Shown in pieces: positions 9,349 to 29,824 of a stretch of DNA of 35,406 nucleotides. The position numbers and the translations under genes were made by a program. The notes below the pieces were generated by a model, which saw nothing but the letters and a program-made list of their open reading frames with translations, was not told where the DNA came from and did no database searches. Numbering within the stretch: position 1 is the first letter of the stretch; each line of letters opens with the position of its first letter. The stretch spans positions 1 through 35,406 of the forward strand of contig CALXOZ010000019.1 of the NCBI GenBank assembly GCA_944390195.1, in the 5' to 3' direction. This DNA comes from an uncultured Alphaproteobacteria bacterium (GTDB lineage: Bacteria; Pseudomonadota; Alphaproteobacteria; CAAGCB01; CAG-977).

Positions 9349-11316
9349 ATGAGCAGACAGGCGGAAATGAAACAGGCAAAAAAGTGGTTGTATGACAATG
9401 CTGAATTTGCCGCGCAATGGGCGATTCAAACTGCACAGGATTTGACGGTTTCGGGAGCTTTTTATACAAAAGAACAGCTTTATGGCGCCTTAGAAGATAC
9501 ATTAATGCTTTTAACGCCTGAACGCACGGGGCGTCAGGACATTACGCCATTGCCGCAAAGCGATTTCGCCAGAAGAATGATTGTTGCAAATGTCGCGTAT
9601 GCCGTTACCAGAAATTCGATTTCCCGTGATTTTGAAACGCCGCATGGCATGGAAACACGGTATACGACGGATGAATTGTTGCAAGCGGAACAAACGATTT
9701 TCAAACAAGCCACTGAAATGGCGGTCACATCCAGTGAAGGTCAACCTTATACGGATTTGGGAAAAATTAAAAGTGCTGTGGCGGAGATGGTTCATGTTAT
9801 AGATATCGGAGTTAACTACGCTTATGATATGCCGTCCGATTTTTTAAAAGTTTTTGATGATTTTTTAAAACCTGGAAATTTACGGATAGCTAACGGGCCT
9901 CCGGGGTCTGGGAAATCGACGTTGGCTCAAGGATTGTTATACGCTTTAACAAAAGATGCGGTTGAAAACGGAGGGCGGGTTCCTGATTTTTATGCGGGGG
10001 CTCCGTCAGAAAAGGCGGCAGCCGATATTGTGAACGATATGAATCTCATGAAGGCTTTTTCCAGTTTGGCAAGACGTGATGAAATAGCTGAAAAGATGCC
10101 GGTTGTTCAAGGTTTTTCATCTTTGGATGAAATGATACGGACGTTGCAATCCGGAAAAGTGAAAAAAGGATCTGTCGTCGTTATTGACGAAGCGGGTTTG
10201 ATGGGGTCAAAGCATATGGCATCTTTGCTGGCGGCGGCGAATAAAAGCCAAGTCCGTTTGTTTATGATGGGGGATAATCTGCAAATTCCTCCCAAGATGG
10301 CAGGAAACGGATTTGACTTGCTTTTGCAAAATAGGAATGAGTTGGGAGTTGATGTCTGTGAATTAGATGTCATTATGCGCCAGAAATCAAAAGGCGAAGC
10401 ACAATGGACGATGGATATCCGTAACGGGGATCCGTTGAAGGCGTTGAAAGGCTATGCGAACCGGCGCTATACATATGATCTGTCGAATCCTTGGAAGCCC
10501 GGCTTTTTATTTTCCGATCAAAGAAAGGAAGGAATGCCGGGATTGCAGATGCAAGATGATAAAAATGCCGTGTATGAACGTTTGACGCAGGATTTCATAG
10601 AGTATATCACCAAATGTCCCGGAGGATCTTATGTCGTCATGGGAACCGATGAAAGTTCTGCCGAAGAGTTAAATTTATATATGCATCAAAAAATGAAAGA
10701 AGCCGGAGTGATCCAAGATGTTATTAACTATGGTACGCCCGACAAACCGTTCGAAATCGGTAAAGGAGATACGTTAATTTTAAATACGCCTTTAAAAATG
10801 CAAGACGCTCAAGCCGGAGAGCAGGTTGAAATTTCTGCGGGAACCCAGTTGATGGTTACAGGCACGGCAAAAGATGTCTTGAGCGTTCAAAACGGCGGTC
10901 GGAGTTTCCAATGCAGTTCAAAGGAATTATGCGCCAGCTCGAAATACGGTTTGGTTCTACCATTGTATCAGGCTCAAGGACAATCGAAAGACCGCTCGTT
11001 TTTGGCAATAGACAAAAAAGGGTGCATGGATAAAGTGTACGGAGGTGTCGCTTTTTCGCGCCATGTCCGCCAGATGTCCGCCTATGTATCAAAACAGGCT
11101 TATCCGACGCTTGATTTTTTAGGAGCGGAGATGTCAGTGTTTAAAACACGTCAACCGTTGTTGTCGGATAATTTGGGACAGGGGATTTTAAAAGAAAATC
11201 CCAAGCAGACGCGAGAAAAGGTTGTTTCTTTCTTTCAACAAGGCTATAACTCTGATAATACAGACCGAAGCCGGGCAATTAATGCCAAGTTAATTCATGC
11301 CCGAAAAGGTCGCTAA
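9349..11316 (+). CDS. Orphan superfamily 1 helicase-like ATPase related to TraA/RecD
   Basis: 655 aa. Walker A GPPGSGKS is at 183-190. Walker B VVVIDEAG has D280-E281 and continues LMGSKHMASLL. Next comes MMGDNLQIPP (motif III, like 'GDxxQLxP' of TraA/TraI/RecD), and near the C-terminus LYQAQGQSKDRSF and AFSRHVRQMSAYV stand in for motifs V and VI. The N-terminal 130 residues contain METRYTTDELLQAE, resembling the 'yTTrelLalE' segment before the helicase domain in TraA relaxases, but no relaxase domain with a His triad is present. It is therefore a stand-alone helicase half of a mobilisation-type protein. It is followed at 15 bp by a small gene and then another, probably one operon. No signal peptide or membrane segment. 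Its function is not known; helicase activity is inferred from motifs. Confidence 0.75.
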   Translation: MSRQAEMKQAKKWLYDNAEFAAQWAIQTAQDLTVSGAFYTKEQLYGALEDTLMLLTPERTGRQDITPLPQSDFARRMIVANVAYAVTRNSISRDFETPHGMETRYTTDELLQAEQTIFKQATEMAVTSSEGQPYTDLGKIKSAVAEMVHVIDIGVNYAYDMPSDFLKVFDDFLKPGNLRIANGPPGSGKSTLAQGLLYALTKDAVENGGRVPDFYAGAPSEKAAADIVNDMNLMKAFSSLARRDEIAEKMPVVQGFSSLDEMIRTLQSGKVKKGSVVVIDEAGLMGSKHMASLLAAANKSQVRLFMMGDNLQIPPKMAGNGFDLLLQNRNELGVDVCELDVIMRQKSKGEAQWTMDIRNGDPLKALKGYANRRYTYDLSNPWKPGFLFSDQRKEGMPGLQMQDDKNAVYERLTQDFIEYITKCPGGSYVVMGTDESSAEELNLYMHQKMKEAGVIQDVINYGTPDKPFEIGKGDTLILNTPLKMQDAQAGEQVEISAGTQLMVTGTAKDVLSVQNGGRSFQCSSKELCASSKYGLVLPLYQAQGQSKDRSFLAIDKKGCMDKVYGGVAFSRHVRQMSAYVSKQAYPTLDFLGAEMSVFKTRQPLLSDNLGQGILKENPKQTREKVVSFFQQGYNSDNTDRSRAINAKLIHARKGR

Positions 11317-23516: not shown

Positions 23517-24260
23517 ATGAATATAAAAATGCCGCCTGACTGGCAATTGATTGAAAAGCGGGAAACATCGAGTACGAATGACGAAGCTAAAAAATTGCCT
23601 GAAGGATCCGGTAAAACGGCTATTTGCGCACGGATTCAAACAGGGGGACGCGGTCGCATGGGACGCCGTTGGATAAGCCCTGAAGGAAATTTATATGTTT
23701 CTTTTTGTCTGGAACCTGTTCGTTTGGATAAAGCCGGAATATACAGCTTTTTGTCGGCATTGTCTTTGTCTCAATCGATTGAACGTCTTTGTCCTTCTTT
23801 ACAGGTTAAATGTAAATGGCCTAATGATCTGTTGGTCAAAGGAAAAAAAATATCGGGCATTTTATTGGAAACGGACGGCATAAAACGCTTGATCGCAGGG
23901 ATAGGGGTCAATTTGGTGCCATGTCCGCAAACCGGTTTGTTGTATCCGGTAACGTCTTTATCCGAAGAAGGATATCATATAACAACCTCTCAGATGTTGG
24001 AAAGTTTGCTGGAACGGTTTGATTTTTGGAATACATGTGTTGAAAAACAGGGGACGACCCCTCTTTTGGCGGCGTGGAGCGAAAAAGCCTATGGCGTGGG
24101 ACGACCGATACGGGTCAATTTGCCAAATGAACAATTGAGCGGAATATTTGACGGTCTTGATAAAGAAGGAAGCTTGTTGTTAAATAAAGACGGGGAAATT
24201 ATAAAAATTACAGCCGGAGATGTTTTTTTTGATAAAATAGGAAAAGATGCAGATGTCTGA
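23517..24260 (+). CDS. birA: Biotin-[acetyl-CoA carboxylase] ligase
   Basis: 247 aa from the ATG at 23517, preceded by GAGGAG. It attaches biotin to the carboxyl carrier protein via biotinyl-AMP. GRGRMGRRW (44-52) is the biotinyl-AMP loop, KWPND the biotin-site motif, and KISGILLE and AGIGVNL follow. No N-terminal helix-turn-helix is present, so it is a mono-functional ligase, not a repressor. Its C-terminal SH3-like domain is present. Its position between nuoN and rnj is typical of alphaproteobacteria; coaX, often found between birA and rnj, is not here. Its end overlaps the rnj start by 14 bp. Confidence 0.95.
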   Translation: MNIKMPPDWQLIEKRETSSTNDEAKKLPEGSGKTAICARIQTGGRGRMGRRWISPEGNLYVSFCLEPVRLDKAGIYSFLSALSLSQSIERLCPSLQVKCKWPNDLLVKGKKISGILLETDGIKRLIAGIGVNLVPCPQTGLLYPVTSLSEEGYHITTSQMLESLLERFDFWNTCVEKQGTTPLLAAWSEKAYGVGRPIRVNLPNEQLSGIFDGLDKEGSLLLNKDGEIIKITAGDVFFDKIGKDADV

Positions 24261-25929
24261 TAAGGATAAGCCGGATTATATAGACATCCCTGATACGGGA
24301 TTGTTTTTTGTTGCTTTGGGCGGTGTTGGCGAAATCGGTATGAACTTTTACCTGTATGCTTGCGATGGTTCGTTTTTAGCGGTCGATTGCGGCATCGGTT
24401 TTGCCGGTGACGGTTTGCCCGGAATCGATATGTTATTACCGGATCCATCTTACTGTGAAAAGATTGCTTCCCGTTTAAAAGGGCTGGTTATTACACATGC
24501 TCATGAAGATCATATCGGAGCGGTTTCTTTGTTTTGGCCTTTATTACGCTGTCCTGTATACGTTTCGGGTTTTGCAGCCGAAATGTTGGAAACACGTTTG
24601 GATGAAGCCGGATTGTTGGGGCGGGTGCCTGTTAATATTTTCCAAGAAGGCGATGCTTTGGATTTGGATCCGTTTGAAGTGGAAACGGTATCTATAAACC
24701 ATTCCATTCCCGAAGCCTCTTCATTATTGATCAAAACGAAATATGGCAACGTGTTCCACACAGGGGATTGGAGGTTTGACGAAGAACCCGTTGTAGGTAA
24801 TCCGATAAATTACAACATCTTCAAGAATCTGAAAAAAGAAAAAATACTGGCTCTTGTCGGAGATTCAACGAATGTTTTTGTTGAAGAAGACATACCTTCG
24901 GAATCGGCAGTGAGATCGGCCTTGACAGATCTGTTCTCCCGATATCAGGGGAAACGTTTGATTGTTACTTGCTTTGCTTCGAATGTCGGTCGGATAGAAA
25001 GTATTGCACAAGCGGCGGAAAAGAACGGTCGACAAGTGTGTTTGTTGGGGCGGTCGTTGTGGCGGGTTGAAGGTGCCGGACGGGCTGCCGGTTATTTTAA
25101 AGGAATTAATGTGTTTTTAACACCGGAGGAGGCGGCTGAGTACAATCCTGCGGACATTCTTTATTTGTGTACGGGGTGTCAAGGGGAACCGAGAGCGGCT
25201 TTATCGAATATTTCTTATGGGACGGGAGCCGTTAAACCGGTTAAGGGTGATGCTGTCATTTTTTCTTCACGGGTTATTCCCGGAAATGAACAAGCCATAG
25301 CAAATATCCAAAACCGTTTTATAGCAAAAGAAATAGATGTCATTACGGTCAAAGATGCCCTTGTGCATGTTTCAGGGCATTCGGGGCGTAAAGATATGAT
25401 AAAACTTTATCATTATTTGAAACCTGATATGGTTGTTCCCGTCCACGGGGAAATGGCTCATCTGTATGAGCATGCTGATTTGGCGGCATCCTGTGGTATA
25501 AAAGAAACCGTTATTATAAAAGACGGAGATGTTTTACGTTTGGACATTCGACCGGCAACTATTATCGGTCAAGTCGAAACAGGGGTTTTGGCGCGTGATC
25601 GCAAAAAAATTCTGCCTTTGAACGCAAATGTGCTTAAACAGCGCCGTCGTATGATTGATGAAGGAACGGTTGTGGCGACTGTTGTTTTGGATAAAAACGG
25701 ATTGGTTGTTGGCAATATTCAATTTTCTACGATGGGATTGATTGAACAAGACGACCCGATCATTCGGGAAATGGATGAATCCATAAAACAAGCAATCATG
25801 CAGTTGTCCGAAAAGCAACGTTTTGATGACAAGATTGTGATTGATACGTTGAAATTTTGCGTGCGTAAAGTTGTTATGCGAACCCATGGTCGACGTCCGC
25901 TGGTTGACACACATTTGGTTAGGATTTGA
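24247..25929 (+). CDS. rnj: Ribonuclease J
   Basis: 560 aa metallo-beta-lactamase/beta-CASP nuclease for RNA maturation and decay. The zinc motif HAHEDH is at 84-89 (VITHAHEDHIGAV). HTGDWRFD, GDSTN, TCFASNVGR and VSGHSGRKDM are the later beta-lactamase and beta-CASP motifs, and VPVHGEMAHL follows. Length fits RNase J of alphaproteobacteria. The first ATG is used; a second two codons later (MSDKD) is equally possible. Last gene of the nuo-birA-rnj run. Confidence 0.95.
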   Translation: MQMSDKDKPDYIDIPDTGLFFVALGGVGEIGMNFYLYACDGSFLAVDCGIGFAGDGLPGIDMLLPDPSYCEKIASRLKGLVITHAHEDHIGAVSLFWPLLRCPVYVSGFAAEMLETRLDEAGLLGRVPVNIFQEGDALDLDPFEVETVSINHSIPEASSLLIKTKYGNVFHTGDWRFDEEPVVGNPINYNIFKNLKKEKILALVGDSTNVFVEEDIPSESAVRSALTDLFSRYQGKRLIVTCFASNVGRIESIAQAAEKNGRQVCLLGRSLWRVEGAGRAAGYFKGINVFLTPEEAAEYNPADILYLCTGCQGEPRAALSNISYGTGAVKPVKGDAVIFSSRVIPGNEQAIANIQNRFIAKEIDVITVKDALVHVSGHSGRKDMIKLYHYLKPDMVVPVHGEMAHLYEHADLAASCGIKETVIIKDGDVLRLDIRPATIIGQVETGVLARDRKKILPLNANVLKQRRRMIDEGTVVATVVLDKNGLVVGNIQFSTMGLIEQDDPIIREMDESIKQAIMQLSEKQRFDDKIVIDTLKFCVRKVVMRTHGRRPLVDTHLVRI

Positions 25930-25942
25930 AAAAAGGGATATA

Positions 25943-25971
25943 TTGAATTTTAATATCGGTAAACCTATCCT
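25943..25971 (+). promoter_or_regulatory. Candidate promoter for the secreted-protein gene
   Basis: TTGAAT, 17-bp spacer, TATCCT, just after the rnj stop and 57 bp before the ATG at 26029. By-eye match to the consensus. Confidence 0.4.
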
Positions 25972-26028
25972 GAAAAAGTAAAAGGAGACAACTTGATCGC
26001 GTTTGAACATTATAAGGGGGAGAGGAAG

Positions 26029-26499
26029 ATGATAAAGATTTTCTTTTTGTTTGTCATTTTTTTCCCGACAGTGTTAATGGCTCAATCAATTCAAATCAAA
26101 GTGTCAAACAGCGATTGTCAAAAGTTGTTGTCATCTTCGGCGGATTATATTCCGGGAGTTTCCGTTACTGGGCAACAGGTCGCGCCGGCGGATCTGAACG
26201 AAAGTGGAATGTTCGCAACGACAGGGCAGGCGGTTGTTCCGGCAAATATTGACGAATCCGTGTCGGTTCCTTCGTTTGATTTGATGACATTGACATTGCC
26301 GGTTTCTTTTGATTTGGGGAAAAACCAGTCGTTTTGGAATTCAAGTTTGGGATTTGGTGATATTCCCGTTGCACAGGTTGAAATGAAAGATGGACAAATT
26401 TTCATGAATGGACGGCTTATTTACGGGAACGATCTGGCAACGTTGAAAAAAGCGTGCTTTCAAGCTGTGAACGGCGGAAGTTTAGACAAAATAAATTGA
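26029..26499 (+). CDS. Conserved secreted protein with a VxGQxVxPADL repeat
   Basis: 156 aa. The ATG at 26029 has GGGGGAGAGG just upstream and begins a signal peptide (MIKIFFLFVIFFPTVLMAQ, cleavage likely after LMA). A TTG at 25993 with AAGGAGA would add 12 residues. The mature part has SADYIPGVSVTGQQVAPADL, then a second TGQAVVPANIDES unit. This resembles the 'YxPGVDVxGxxVxPADL' pattern of short uncharacterised periplasmic alphaproteobacterial proteins, recalled from memory. Function unknown. A decayed copy of its 3' part is at 27585-27884. Its stop codon overlaps the -35 box of the promoter of the next gene. Confidence 0.8.
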   Translation: MIKIFFLFVIFFPTVLMAQSIQIKVSNSDCQKLLSSSADYIPGVSVTGQQVAPADLNESGMFATTGQAVVPANIDESVSVPSFDLMTLTLPVSFDLGKNQSFWNSSLGFGDIPVAQVEMKDGQIFMNGRLIYGNDLATLKKACFQAVNGGSLDKIN

Positions 26500-26524
26500 C
26501 AGACTTTTTCATTTTTTTTAACAT
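26496..26524 (+). promoter_or_regulatory. Promoter of the first metallopeptidase gene
   Basis: TTGACA, 17-bp spacer, TAACAT. The -35 hexamer overlaps the TGA stop of the secreted-protein gene. The same arrangement is repeated at 27881-27909, which supports it as real. Confidence 0.7.
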
Positions 26525-26557
26525 GAAAACAAGTGAAAAAGTTTGGAGAAAAAATTA

Positions 26558-27556
26558 ATGTCCGAGACAACAAGTGAATTTTTGCAAAAGTCATATAAAC
26601 GGTACGCAAACGGTCGTTCGGCTCAACAAGCTAAAAAGACTTTGGCAAATGCTTTTAAGGCTTCTTCTGAAAAAGATGCGGCAAGAGAAAAAATGTTGTT
26701 TGAAGGTATTCTTGATTCAGTTATGAAGACGCCTGAAGGTCGTAGAACTTTAATGACATTATCCCAATTTGGGTATTCCTTTGCTTTTGAAAAAGGAAAC
26801 TTTGGCGGTTTTTGTGATTCCACTAATAAAAAAATTGTCATTAATCCCTCTTTCAGTTTGGAATATATGCTTCAAACTGCCGTTCATGAAGGGCGTCATG
26901 CGATCCAGTTTTCTTTGGAAAATCCGAATGCCCCGAGTTACGAAAAAATGCAAGTGGCTTCATTGCTCAGACAGCGTCGTGCGATAGAAGCCGATGCGGT
27001 TGCTCACGAAATGGCTTTTGTTTATCAGTGTAAAAATGTTTTACCGAAAGTGTATGAAAGTGCAAAAGAACAGGGCTTGCCCATGTTTCATGCTTATGTA
27101 AATGAAATGGACAAATCGCATGATGAACGGAAGGCTATGCAGGCATGCTTTAAAGCTTGGTATGAATGTGATTATTACCGTAATTATTATGATAAATGGC
27201 ACAAAGACGGAGTAGGGCATGTTTGTGAATATGCTAAAAAGGCTAAAAATCCAGATTGCTTTTCAAAAGAATACCCTGTCGAAGATGTATTGCGGATGTG
27301 CTGTTATAAAGGGAAGCCATATATGTCTGCTGATTTTTTGAACAGCGGAAAACCGTTTTCAATTACGCCGGAAGATAAAAAAGAAATTGTCTTCATGTTA
27401 CAAGACTATGCCGATTCCGTTGCCGGAGCGAAAATGGATAAATCCGTTTTACACATGGCGGAACGAAATAAAAACGGAGAGCTTATCAAACCGGCGTCTT
27501 TACAGGAAAAACCGATCTCTTTTATTTCAACAAGATTAAGTCAAAAAGGGCGTTGA
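26558..27556 (+). CDS. HExxH metallopeptidase-like protein, paralogue 1
   Basis: 332 aa, no signal peptide, so cytoplasmic. HEGRH at 110-114 within AVHEGRHAIQF gives an HExxH zinc site. About 30 residues later, RRAIEADAVAHE supplies an E144/D146 candidate third ligand, as in gluzincin- or related minimal metalloproteases. This may correspond to the putative metallopeptidase family DUF6782. The C-terminal half (RMCCYKGKPYMSADFLNSG) is shared with paralogue 2. The ATG at 26558 has GGAGA about 8 nt upstream; an in-frame TTG five codons earlier is less likely. Substrate unknown. Preceded by its own promoter. Confidence 0.8.
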   Translation: MSETTSEFLQKSYKRYANGRSAQQAKKTLANAFKASSEKDAAREKMLFEGILDSVMKTPEGRRTLMTLSQFGYSFAFEKGNFGGFCDSTNKKIVINPSFSLEYMLQTAVHEGRHAIQFSLENPNAPSYEKMQVASLLRQRRAIEADAVAHEMAFVYQCKNVLPKVYESAKEQGLPMFHAYVNEMDKSHDERKAMQACFKAWYECDYYRNYYDKWHKDGVGHVCEYAKKAKNPDCFSKEYPVEDVLRMCCYKGKPYMSADFLNSGKPFSITPEDKKEIVFMLQDYADSVAGAKMDKSVLHMAERNKNGELIKPASLQEKPISFISTRLSQKGR

Positions 27557-27584
27557 AATAATATCGACAGGGGGGAACAGTTGT

Positions 27585-27884
27585 TCCCTCTTTAGACGTG
27601 GGTTGATTCGAAAGAGGGGTGTTTTTGTTACCGGGAAACAGATCATAAAATCTTTTTTCAGATGGCGGGTTTGTATCCATGCTTTCATCCGGAGTGATGA
27701 CATTGCCGGTTTCCTTTTTTCTTGAAAAGTTTTGAAATCAAATTCGCGCTTTGACGATATTTTCGTCGCGCAAATTAAAAAAACAGATTTCATAAAAGGA
27801 TGGTATTTTTTCGGGAACCGTCCAATATTGAAAGACGTCTGCTTTCAAGTCAGGAACAACGATAATTTGGACAGAATAAATTGA
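27585..27884 (+). pseudogene. Decayed copy of the secreted-protein gene 3' part
   Basis: The stretch resembles the 3' two-thirds of the gene at 26029-26499 with many substitutions, deletions and frame breaks. Matching islands include GTTACCGGGAAACAG against GTTACTGGGCAACAG, TGACATTGCCGGTTTC, TCGGGAAC against ACGGGAAC, TGCTTTCAAG, and the end GACAGAATAAATTGACA against GACAAAATAAATTGACA. No open frame remains, so it is a pseudogene. The left boundary is approximate. It shows that a secreted-protein plus metallopeptidase unit was duplicated as one block. Confidence 0.75.
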
Positions 27885-27909
27885 CAAACTTTTCTCCTTT
27901 TTCTAAGAT
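27881..27909 (+). promoter_or_regulatory. Promoter of the second metallopeptidase gene
   Basis: TTGACA, 17-bp spacer, TAAGAT, at the same place relative to the decayed stop codon as the promoter at 26496-26524. Both hexamers are kept although the coding sequence beside them has decayed. Confidence 0.7.
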
Positions 27910-27936
27910 GCAGCCAAATACGCGTGATGGAATTAT

Positions 27937-28941
27937 ATGGGAAGAAAGACTGTGTTCGGATCATTATTCTCAAAAAAATTACCCAAGTCTAAGAATGCTT
28001 CTAACATCCAACAAGTGAAAAAGACTTTGTCAAACGCTTTTACGGCTTCTTCCGAAAGAGATGCGGCAAAAGAAAAAATTTTATTTGAAAATATCCTTAA
28101 TTCTGTAATGAAAACGCCAGAAGGGCGCCGGACATTGATGACATTATCCAAATTTGGGTATTCCTTCGCTTTTGAAAAAGGGAACTTCGGCGGTTTTTGT
28201 GATTCTGACGCCAAGAAGATTCTGATCAATCCGAGCTGCAGTGAGGAATATATGATTCGAACGCTTGTTCATGAAGGACGTCATGCGATTCAGTTTGCTT
28301 TTGAAAATCCTAAAAGCCCGAAATATGAAGAGATGAAAGTTTCTTCGATGCTTAGGCAACGTCGTGCGCTGGAAGCTGATGCGGTTGCTCATGAAATGGC
28401 TTTTGTGTATGAATGCAAAAGTATTTTACCGGAAGTATATGAAAGCGCAAAAAAACAGGGATTACCTGTGTTCCGCGCCTATGTAACCGAGATGAACAAG
28501 TCTAATGACGCAAAAAAAGCCATGCAGTCCTCTTTTAAGGCGTGGTATGAAAGTGATTATTATCGCAAATGCTATGATAAATGGCATAAACAAGGGGTGA
28601 AAGATATTTGCAAATACGCTAAAGCCAGTCGGAATCCCAATTGTTTTTCAAAAGAGTATCCCGTTCAAGATGTATTGCGGATGTGCTGTTATAAAGGGGA
28701 GCCGTATATATCGGCTGATTTTTTAAACAGCGGAAAGCCGTTTTCAATTACACCGGAGGATAAAAAAGAAATTGTCGCCATGGTTCAGGATTATGCTGAT
28801 TCAGTTCCCAAAGCAAAGGCGGATAAGTCTGTTTTGTCCATGCCGGATCGTGATCAAAACGGAAATCTTGTCAAGACGTCGAATTTAAAGGACAAAAGAA
28901 TAGTTGTTGCCGTTGCCGGTCGTGAAAATAACAGGAGGTAA
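27937..28941 (+). CDS. HExxH metallopeptidase-like protein, paralogue 2
   Basis: 334 aa. It is close to paralogue 1 along nearly the whole length, with only the first 25 residues and last 30 clearly different. HEGRH is at 112-116, with E146/D148 in RRALEADAV. The first residues (MGRKTVFGSLFSKK) are basic and differ from paralogue 1, but no signal peptide is present. The last residues are VAGRENNRR. It is two bases from paralogue 3, so the two are probably co-transcribed. Function unknown; peptidase activity is inferred from the motif. Confidence 0.8.
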   Translation: MGRKTVFGSLFSKKLPKSKNASNIQQVKKTLSNAFTASSERDAAKEKILFENILNSVMKTPEGRRTLMTLSKFGYSFAFEKGNFGGFCDSDAKKILINPSCSEEYMIRTLVHEGRHAIQFAFENPKSPKYEEMKVSSMLRQRRALEADAVAHEMAFVYECKSILPEVYESAKKQGLPVFRAYVTEMNKSNDAKKAMQSSFKAWYESDYYRKCYDKWHKQGVKDICKYAKASRNPNCFSKEYPVQDVLRMCCYKGEPYISADFLNSGKPFSITPEDKKEIVAMVQDYADSVPKAKADKSVLSMPDRDQNGNLVKTSNLKDKRIVVAVAGRENNRR

Positions 28942-28942
28942 C

Positions 28943-29824
28943 ATGGTGGAGCAAAAATCCGATTTTGAGTGTCTGGCAAAATTAAATAATTCCATCTATG
29001 CTCAAACGGGAGCCGATCGTGAAAAATTCGCCACTCTTTTGAACATTGCCTATGAAACGCCTAAAGGGCGGGAAGTGATGAATGCTGTTGCTTTTAAAGG
29101 GTATTCTTTTACATATGATACAATGTTCGGTGTAAATGGGGCATGTGATTATGACCGTAAAGTCGTGCGTTTGGATTCCTATTTCATGCAAAAAGATCTG
29201 GCGCCGGTTTTGATCCACGAGTGTACACATATTCGTCAGATCGACCGGTTGGTTGAAAAAACGGGTCAACCGGATGTAACAGGCTTTATTGCAGGGCTGA
29301 GCGCATATGATTTTATCAAATTGAATCGGGCGTTGGAAGCCGATGCTTGTGCGCATCAAGCGGCTTTTGCGTATCAAATGAGGGAAAAATATCCTCAAGT
29401 GTTTGAAAAAGAAATGAAAACACCGATGATGCAGGCTTATGTCGCTCAAATGGATAAAACCGGAGACGAAACAAAAGCTATGCAGGCAAGCTTTGAAGCG
29501 TGGTATGGTTATAAAAATTATCAGGAAGCTTATGAAAAACAGTACCTAGCTCAAATTCAGGAAAATATTCGACAAAGGGGATCGCGACAAGTGTCTTCCA
29601 TTTCTAACGGACAAATTTCCGGATTGTGCCTGTTGAACGGGAAATCATATATTCCCCCCTCTTTTTTTGATCGGGTTGAAAACATGGCGGTTTCTGAAAA
29701 GGGAAAAGATATTTTGTCGCAAACCGGCGATCAATCAGTATCCCGTCTGCCTGTCAGAAACCGGCAAAGCAATACATTACCGCCTGTGGTATTAAAAGTG
29801 ATGCGTTCGATTCAAGGTCGATAA
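28943..29824 (+). CDS. HExxH metallopeptidase-like protein, divergent paralogue 3
   Basis: 293 aa from the ATG at 28943, which has AGGAGGTAAC directly upstream; a longer frame overlaps the previous gene. HECTH is at 92-96, and LEADACAHQAAF with E132/D134 is the same spacing class as the other two. It also shares TPKGREVMN, MQAYVAQMDK, AMQASFEAWY and KSYIPPSFF with them, but most other positions differ, so this is the older split. It ends in SIQGR, similar to the KGR end of paralogue 1. Cytoplasmic. Substrate unknown. Confidence 0.78.
   Translation: MVEQKSDFECLAKLNNSIYAQTGADREKFATLLNIAYETPKGREVMNAVAFKGYSFTYDTMFGVNGACDYDRKVVRLDSYFMQKDLAPVLIHECTHIRQIDRLVEKTGQPDVTGFIAGLSAYDFIKLNRALEADACAHQAAFAYQMREKYPQVFEKEMKTPMMQAYVAQMDKTGDETKAMQASFEAWYGYKNYQEAYEKQYLAQIQENIRQRGSRQVSSISNGQISGLCLLNGKSYIPPSFFDRVENMAVSEKGKDILSQTGDQSVSRLPVRNRQSNTLPPVVLKVMRSIQGR

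What the first reader, a model, noticed from the sequence alone, without database searches (positions are those of the whole stretch)
26029..28941. Segmental duplication with one copy of the secreted-protein gene decayed
Seen: 27585-27884 carries many short blocks of the 26029-26499 gene, including its terminal GACAAAATAAATTGACA-like sequence, followed by a paralogue of the gene that follows the intact copy. So the unit [secreted protein, metallopeptidase] was duplicated, and one secreted-protein copy then became a pseudogene while the metallopeptidase was kept. This gives the order of events and implies the metallopeptidases are retained for their own function.
Basis: seen in the sequence. 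Interest (0 to 1): 0.65.

Follow-up and report, generated by a model that had tools for sequence, protein, structure and literature searches.

The report
Tandem duplication leaving a truncated gene remnant
A gut-type alphaproteobacterium duplicated a gene for a predicted metal-dependent enzyme together with only the tail end of the neighbouring small secreted-protein gene; both enzyme copies stayed under selection while the tail end decayed into a promoter-bearing remnant, which is an ordinary genome event.

Summary
The duplication is real. Repeats D1, D2, D3 and D5 share one offset of 1385 nt, and the 3' part of the secreted-protein gene (26290-26499) aligns with 27698-27884 at score 144 (shuffled maximum 45 of 500). 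Relatives in the genus carry rnj-sec-M-M3 once. In a tree the two metallopeptidase-like copies (M1 26558-27556, M2 27937-28941) are sisters, and rival placements are rejected, so the duplication is specific to this lineage. Two corrections apply. First, the first 262 nt of sec cannot be recognised in 27557-27697, and uniform decay of a full-length copy would have left a clear signal. The remnant is therefore 5'-truncated, perhaps from birth, and a once-intact second sec copy is not shown. Second, the remnant's 3' end includes a TTGACA-17-TAAGAT promoter-like element overlapping the sec stop codon, also present before M1, so M2 kept its promoter. The remnant has seven small deletions and no codon-position bias. 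M1 and M2 keep the HExxH motif with dN/dS about 0.2; M2 changes faster. Side finding: DUF6782 has 17-35 copies per genome in this family, most sharing a basic C-terminal tail ending in Arg. The event is ordinary; the tail is a lead.

The parts
24247..25929 (+). RNase J gene (rnj), the conserved upstream neighbour
   Evidence: PF22505 E 9.5e-33; same neighbour in relatives
26029..26499 (+). intact small protein gene 'sec' with a signal-peptide-like N-terminus; single copy in the genus
   Evidence: no Pfam or NCBIfam match
26496..26524 (+). promoter-like element of M1, TTGACA-17-TAACAT, overlapping the sec stop codon
   Evidence: relatives keep a related element at the same place
26558..27556 (+). 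M1: DUF6782 putative zincin (HEGRH), slowly evolving copy
   Evidence: PF20573 E 1.5e-39; 73% identical to the orthologues in G002 and G004
27557..27697 (+). 141 nt of unrecognised sequence at the duplication junction
   Evidence: no match beyond chance to sec's 5' part in the anchored alignment or elsewhere in the genome or relatives (best E 0.067)
27698..27884 (+). 5'-truncated, decayed remnant of the sec 3' end (sec nt 262-471)
   Evidence: score 144 v shuffled maximum 45; seven deletions, no insertions, differences 11/62, 17/61, 17/64 by codon position
27881..27909 (+). retained promoter-like element of M2, TTGACA-17-TAAGAT
27937..28941 (+). M2: second DUF6782 copy, faster evolving, HEGRH kept, C-terminal -KGR changed to -NRR
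   Evidence: PF20573 E 6.9e-41; sister of M1
28943..29824 (+). M3: older DUF6782 paralogue, conserved in the genus
   Evidence: PF20573 E 2.6e-37; next to M in G002-G005

Best explanation
A tandem duplication in this lineage copied the 3' part of sec, with the promoter that overlaps its stop codon, and the whole M gene. The result was sec-M1-(3' sec remnant)-M2-M3. The remnant carries no usable sec reading frame, since it lacks the start, signal peptide and first half, and it then decayed by small deletions. Its last bases kept working as the M2 promoter (inferred from sequence, not shown). Both M copies are kept by purifying selection; M2 diverges faster, consistent with a changing role. What M does is inferred only: an HExxH zincin-fold enzyme of a large lineage-expanded DUF6782 family, possibly exported by the genome's VirB-type type IV secretion system through its basic C-terminal tail.
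For: Constant 1385-nt offset through both M genes to their stop codons. Remnant alignment far above shuffles. Single sec-M-M3 order in G002, G003, G004, G005. M1+M2 sister at 99/98 and 96/98; the trees joining M1 or M2 to the G002/G004 orthologues are rejected (p-AU 0.003 and 0.010). M1/M2 dN 0.22, dS 1.11, ratio 0.20. The remnant lacks codon-position bias, unlike sec between genomes (0.36-0.39, 0.21-0.25, 0.53) and M1/M2 (0.24, 0.16, 0.41). A full-length copy decaying uniformly at the same rate (substitution 0.24-0.30) would give a 5' score of 154-202 on average, minimum 67, against 33 observed. Promoter-like elements at 26496 and 27881 are the only + strand matches with 10 of 12 bases in the region.
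Against: The remnant is less diverged (24% of aligned sites) than expected from neutral evolution since a duplication with 47% fourfold-site divergence between M1 and M2. Alignment bias, constraint on the promoter end, gene conversion, or a later loss of function could each account for that. A weak block at 27576-27644 resembles sec nt 92-153 (3 of 500 shuffles), which would fit a fuller copy that lost much of its 5' part later. The promoter end is not better kept than the rest of the remnant.
Confidence: 0.65

Rival explanations
1. The full sec-M unit was duplicated, and the second sec then lost its 5' part by one or a few large deletions or replacements, as the first reader proposed with an added deletion step.
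For: Weak block at 27576-27644 against sec nt 92-153 (3 of 500 shuffles). The remnant shows a deletion bias, 7 deletions and 0 insertions. Low overall divergence leaves room for a functional period.
Against: No codon-position bias in the remnant. The anchored alignment of the 5' part is not better than chance.
Confidence: 0.25
2. The remnant is not a pseudogene as such but a regulatory leader for M2 kept under constraint.
For: Promoter-like element kept with exact 17-nt spacing. Lower divergence than the neutral expectation.
Against: The promoter end is not better kept than the rest (11 of 39 against 34 of 148 sites differ). Relatives have no comparable leader.
Confidence: 0.08
3. Assembly artefact: two alleles or strains joined in tandem.
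For: The genome is a draft in 38 contigs and its nearest relatives in public records are metagenome-assembled.
Against: M1 and M2 differ at 32% of residues and are about equally far from G002 at fourfold sites. Flanking order is as in relatives.
Confidence: 0.02

Closest known systems
Tandem gene duplication with a truncated or pseudogenised neighbour (ordinary bacterial gene-family expansion)
   Same: Direct repeat in tandem, sister paralogues, deletion-biased decay of the unselected piece
   Different: Nothing essential; the retained piece happens to carry the next gene's promoter-like element
PF20573 DUF6782, putative metallopeptidase family
   Same: M1, M2 and M3 all match far above the cut-off
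   Different: Activity untested. The best fold matches are the HExxH domain of ChlB (8s5f, titled as an alpha-ketoglutarate-dependent oxygenase) and SjiH (22ob) at Z 8.9 and 8.0, then zincin peptidases at Z 6-6.7, so peptidase activity is not established
VirB/D4 type IV secretion substrates with Arg-rich C-terminal signals (review PMC10025392, citing Vergunst 2005)
   Same: Basic C-terminal tail ending in Arg; VirB8, VirB9, VirB10, VirB11-like and VirD4-like genes present
   Different: No translocation evidence; match of the tail to the published Agrobacterium motif was not tested

Membership tests
tandem duplication | two copies in direct orientation with constant offset | tested here: met
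   offset 1385 in D1, D2, D3 and D5
tandem duplication | copies are each other's closest relatives | tested here: met
   96-99/98 support; alternatives rejected
pseudogene of sec | homology to the functional gene beyond chance | tested here: met
   score 144 v shuffled maximum 45, 3' 45% of the gene only
pseudogene of sec | disrupted reading frame | tested here: met
   stops in all frames, several deletions not divisible by 3, no start or signal peptide
pseudogene of sec | derived from a once full-length functional copy | tested here: inconclusive
   5' part unrecognisable; simulation rejects uniform decay of a full copy
DUF6782 (PF20573) | match above curated cut-off | tested here: met
   129-141 bits v cut-off 27
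zinc metallopeptidase | HExxH motif and downstream acidic ligand | tested here: met
   HEGRH at 110-114 and EADA at 144-147 of M1; H110, E111, H114 and E144 at least 90% conserved in 74 sequences. That E144 is the metal ligand is inferred
zinc metallopeptidase | peptidase activity | not testable with these tools
   needs an enzyme assay
VirB/D4 T4SS substrate | C-terminal basic signal | tested here: met
   75 of 83 DUF6782 end in Arg v 38 of 244 other ORFs; net charge of last 25 residues 4.7 v 1.1
VirB/D4 T4SS substrate | translocation by the T4SS | not testable with these tools
   needs a translocation or coupling-protein binding assay

The most novel reading that the evidence does not exclude
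M1, M2 and the other 17-35 DUF6782 proteins per genome are a lineage-specific arsenal of enzymes exported by a VirB-type type IV secretion system, marked by a shared basic C-terminal tail ending in -GR or -SR. The duplication seen here is one step of that expansion, with the promoter carried along inside the upstream gene's 3' end.
Probability: 0.3. Interest if true: 0.6.

Novelty: new member of a known kind. Interest (0 to 1): 0.25.

Why it matters
As an event it is ordinary. It gives a dated example of how a large lineage-specific enzyme family grows: the copied unit carries its promoter inside the 3' end of the upstream gene, so the upstream piece can decay without silencing the copy. The wider family, with a common C-terminal tail in genomes that carry a VirB-type secretion system, is a testable lead: no paper in the held library mentions DUF6782.

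Tried and rejected
Full-length uniform decay of the second sec: rejected by simulation. Homology of 27557-27690 to the M3 start: no better than chance (187 of 500 shuffles). To the rnj end and to the M1 3' end: scores only 31, reached by 11 and 3 of 500 shuffles, so as good as the sec block and none convincing. Source of the 141 nt elsewhere in the genome or relatives: best E 0.067. A paired GACA direct repeat as a family-wide operator: 6 of 104 upstream regions against 0.03 expected, so real but in few genes; in the window's own genome the stricter pattern found 7 places against 4 for the reversed control. A Dot/Icm system: the DotH/IcmK model found nothing, but it rang in no control either; the neighbouring genes are VirB8, VirB8, VirB9, VirB10 and a VirB11-like ATPase. 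NCBIfam and PHROGs gave no meaningful matches.

Full report
Setting. The window is one whole contig (C19) of a 2.12 Mb alphaproteobacterial genome in 38 contigs. Local gene order is nuoN - birA - rnj - sec - M1 - remnant - M2 - M3 - mscS(-) - ruvX(-) - gatC. RNase J, DUF6782 and MscS were identified here by Pfam; nuoN, birA, ruvX and gatC are named from their sequence.

The observation. The duplicated DNA shows up as repeat families D1, D2, D3 and D5, all spaced by exactly 1385 nt; the two M stop codons are also 1385 nt apart. The remnant of sec is real: local alignment of sec with 27557-27884 scores 144 against a shuffled mean of 30 and maximum of 45, over sec nt 262-471 and window 27698-27884. 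That part is not supported. Against sec's first 262-272 nt, 27557-27690 gives only one short block (3 of 500 shuffles reach it), and the alignment anchored on the sure homology is reached by 58 of 500 shuffles.

What the remnant is. 187 sites align and 45 differ (24%). By codon position the differences are 11/62, 17/61 and 17/64, so no third-position excess, while sec between genomes shows 0.36-0.39, 0.21-0.25 and 0.53. There are seven gaps, all deletions in the remnant (2, 7, 1, 6, 2, 1 and 3 nt), and stops in all three frames. If a full-length copy had decayed evenly at the same rate, the 5' part would still score 154-202 on average (minimum 67) against 33 observed, and would be about 237 nt long. 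The 141 nt present there match nothing convincing in the genome or in 12 others. So the copy is 5'-truncated, and whether a whole second sec ever existed is open.

When it happened. The same-genus genomes with a detected rnj (G002-G006) have one sec directly after rnj, then M. G002-G005 have one M followed by M3. G006 has three M copies in a row with almost no spacer, so M can be amplified without sec. M1 and M2 are sisters (99/98 and 96/98). Trees that join M1, or M2, to the G002/G004 orthologues are rejected (p-AU 0.003 and 0.010). In the tree the G000 M3 row was misframed (16 stops), but the tree left M3 out and agrees. Fourfold-site divergence of M1/M2 (0.47) is just under that of M1 to G004 (0.51) and G002 (0.59), which puts the duplication soon after the split. 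One tension: the remnant is less diverged than neutral evolution since then would predict. Alignment bias, gene conversion or a later loss of function could explain this.

Selection on the copies. M1/M2 dN is 0.22, dS 1.11, ratio 0.20. Both keep HEGRH and EADA. At columns where G002, G003 and G004 agree, M1 alone changed at 4 and M2 alone at 32, and the M2 tree branch is about four times longer. So both are under purifying selection, with M2 the faster copy.

Why the end of the remnant matters. These are the only + strand promoter-like sites with 10 of 12 matches in 25800-29000, although the total number of promoter-like sites there (11) is not much above shuffles (7.1). In G002, G003, G004 and G005 a related element (T[AG]GACAAAAA..TTGAC[AT]..TAT..T) spans the sec end; in G006 it lies just after the stop, outside coding sequence, so it is kept as DNA and not only as protein. 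TTGACA is found upstream of 37 of 104 DUF6782 genes against 4.5 in shuffles (18 on the reverse strand). That it works as a promoter is inferred.

What M is. PF20573 DUF6782 is named a putative metallopeptidase family; the genomes of this family carry 17-35 copies, and most other alphaproteobacteria tested carry none. The AlphaFold2 model of M1 is confident (mean pLDDT 92). Foldseek finds no match with E of 0.001 or less. In the second look the best are the HExxH domain of ChlB (8s5f) and SjiH (22ob) at Z 8.9 and 8.0, then zincins at Z 6-6.7, including Wss1, aminopeptidases and lethal factor. Such Z values support a zincin-like arrangement and no particular activity.

Side lead. 75 of 83 DUF6782 proteins end in Arg against 38 of 244 other ORFs; 40 against 7 end in GR; the last 25 residues average net charge +4.7 against +1.1. 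Paralogy inflates these counts, but the linkers before the tail vary widely. All 13 genomes with many DUF6782 copies have a TrbI/VirB10 protein, and in this genome it lies with VirB9, two VirB8 and a VirB11-like ATPase. VirD4-like proteins are present. Arg-rich C-terminal signals are known for VirB/D4 substrates (PMC10025392). The secretion link is a hypothesis; some genomes have TrbI without DUF6782.

Verdict. A genuine but ordinary lineage-specific tandem duplication with a truncated, decayed upstream piece.

Noticed in passing
window 26558-29824 and 102 DUF6782 genes in the genomes sampled: Nearly all DUF6782 proteins share a basic C-terminal tail ending in Arg, often -GR or -SR, although the linkers before it vary greatly.
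   Followed up: partly
window 9349-11316: A protein of about 655 residues with an AAA_30 (RecD/TraI-like helicase) domain ends in -ARKGR, like the DUF6782 tails.
   Followed up: partly
L113 14080-18951 (-) and L114 1504-4695 (-): VirB-type secretion cluster with a giant VirB10-like open frame of about 2157 aa carrying beta-flower repeats, VirB9 with a SPOR domain, and two VirB8 genes.
   Followed up: partly
L052 7270-10303 (-): In G006 the M gene is tripled in tandem with almost no spacer, apparently independently of the event in the window.
   Followed up: partly
upstream of DUF6782 genes, for example in L024, L019, L017: Some have two GACAAA boxes 12-14 nt apart before the gene, which could be a shared operator.
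   Followed up: partly
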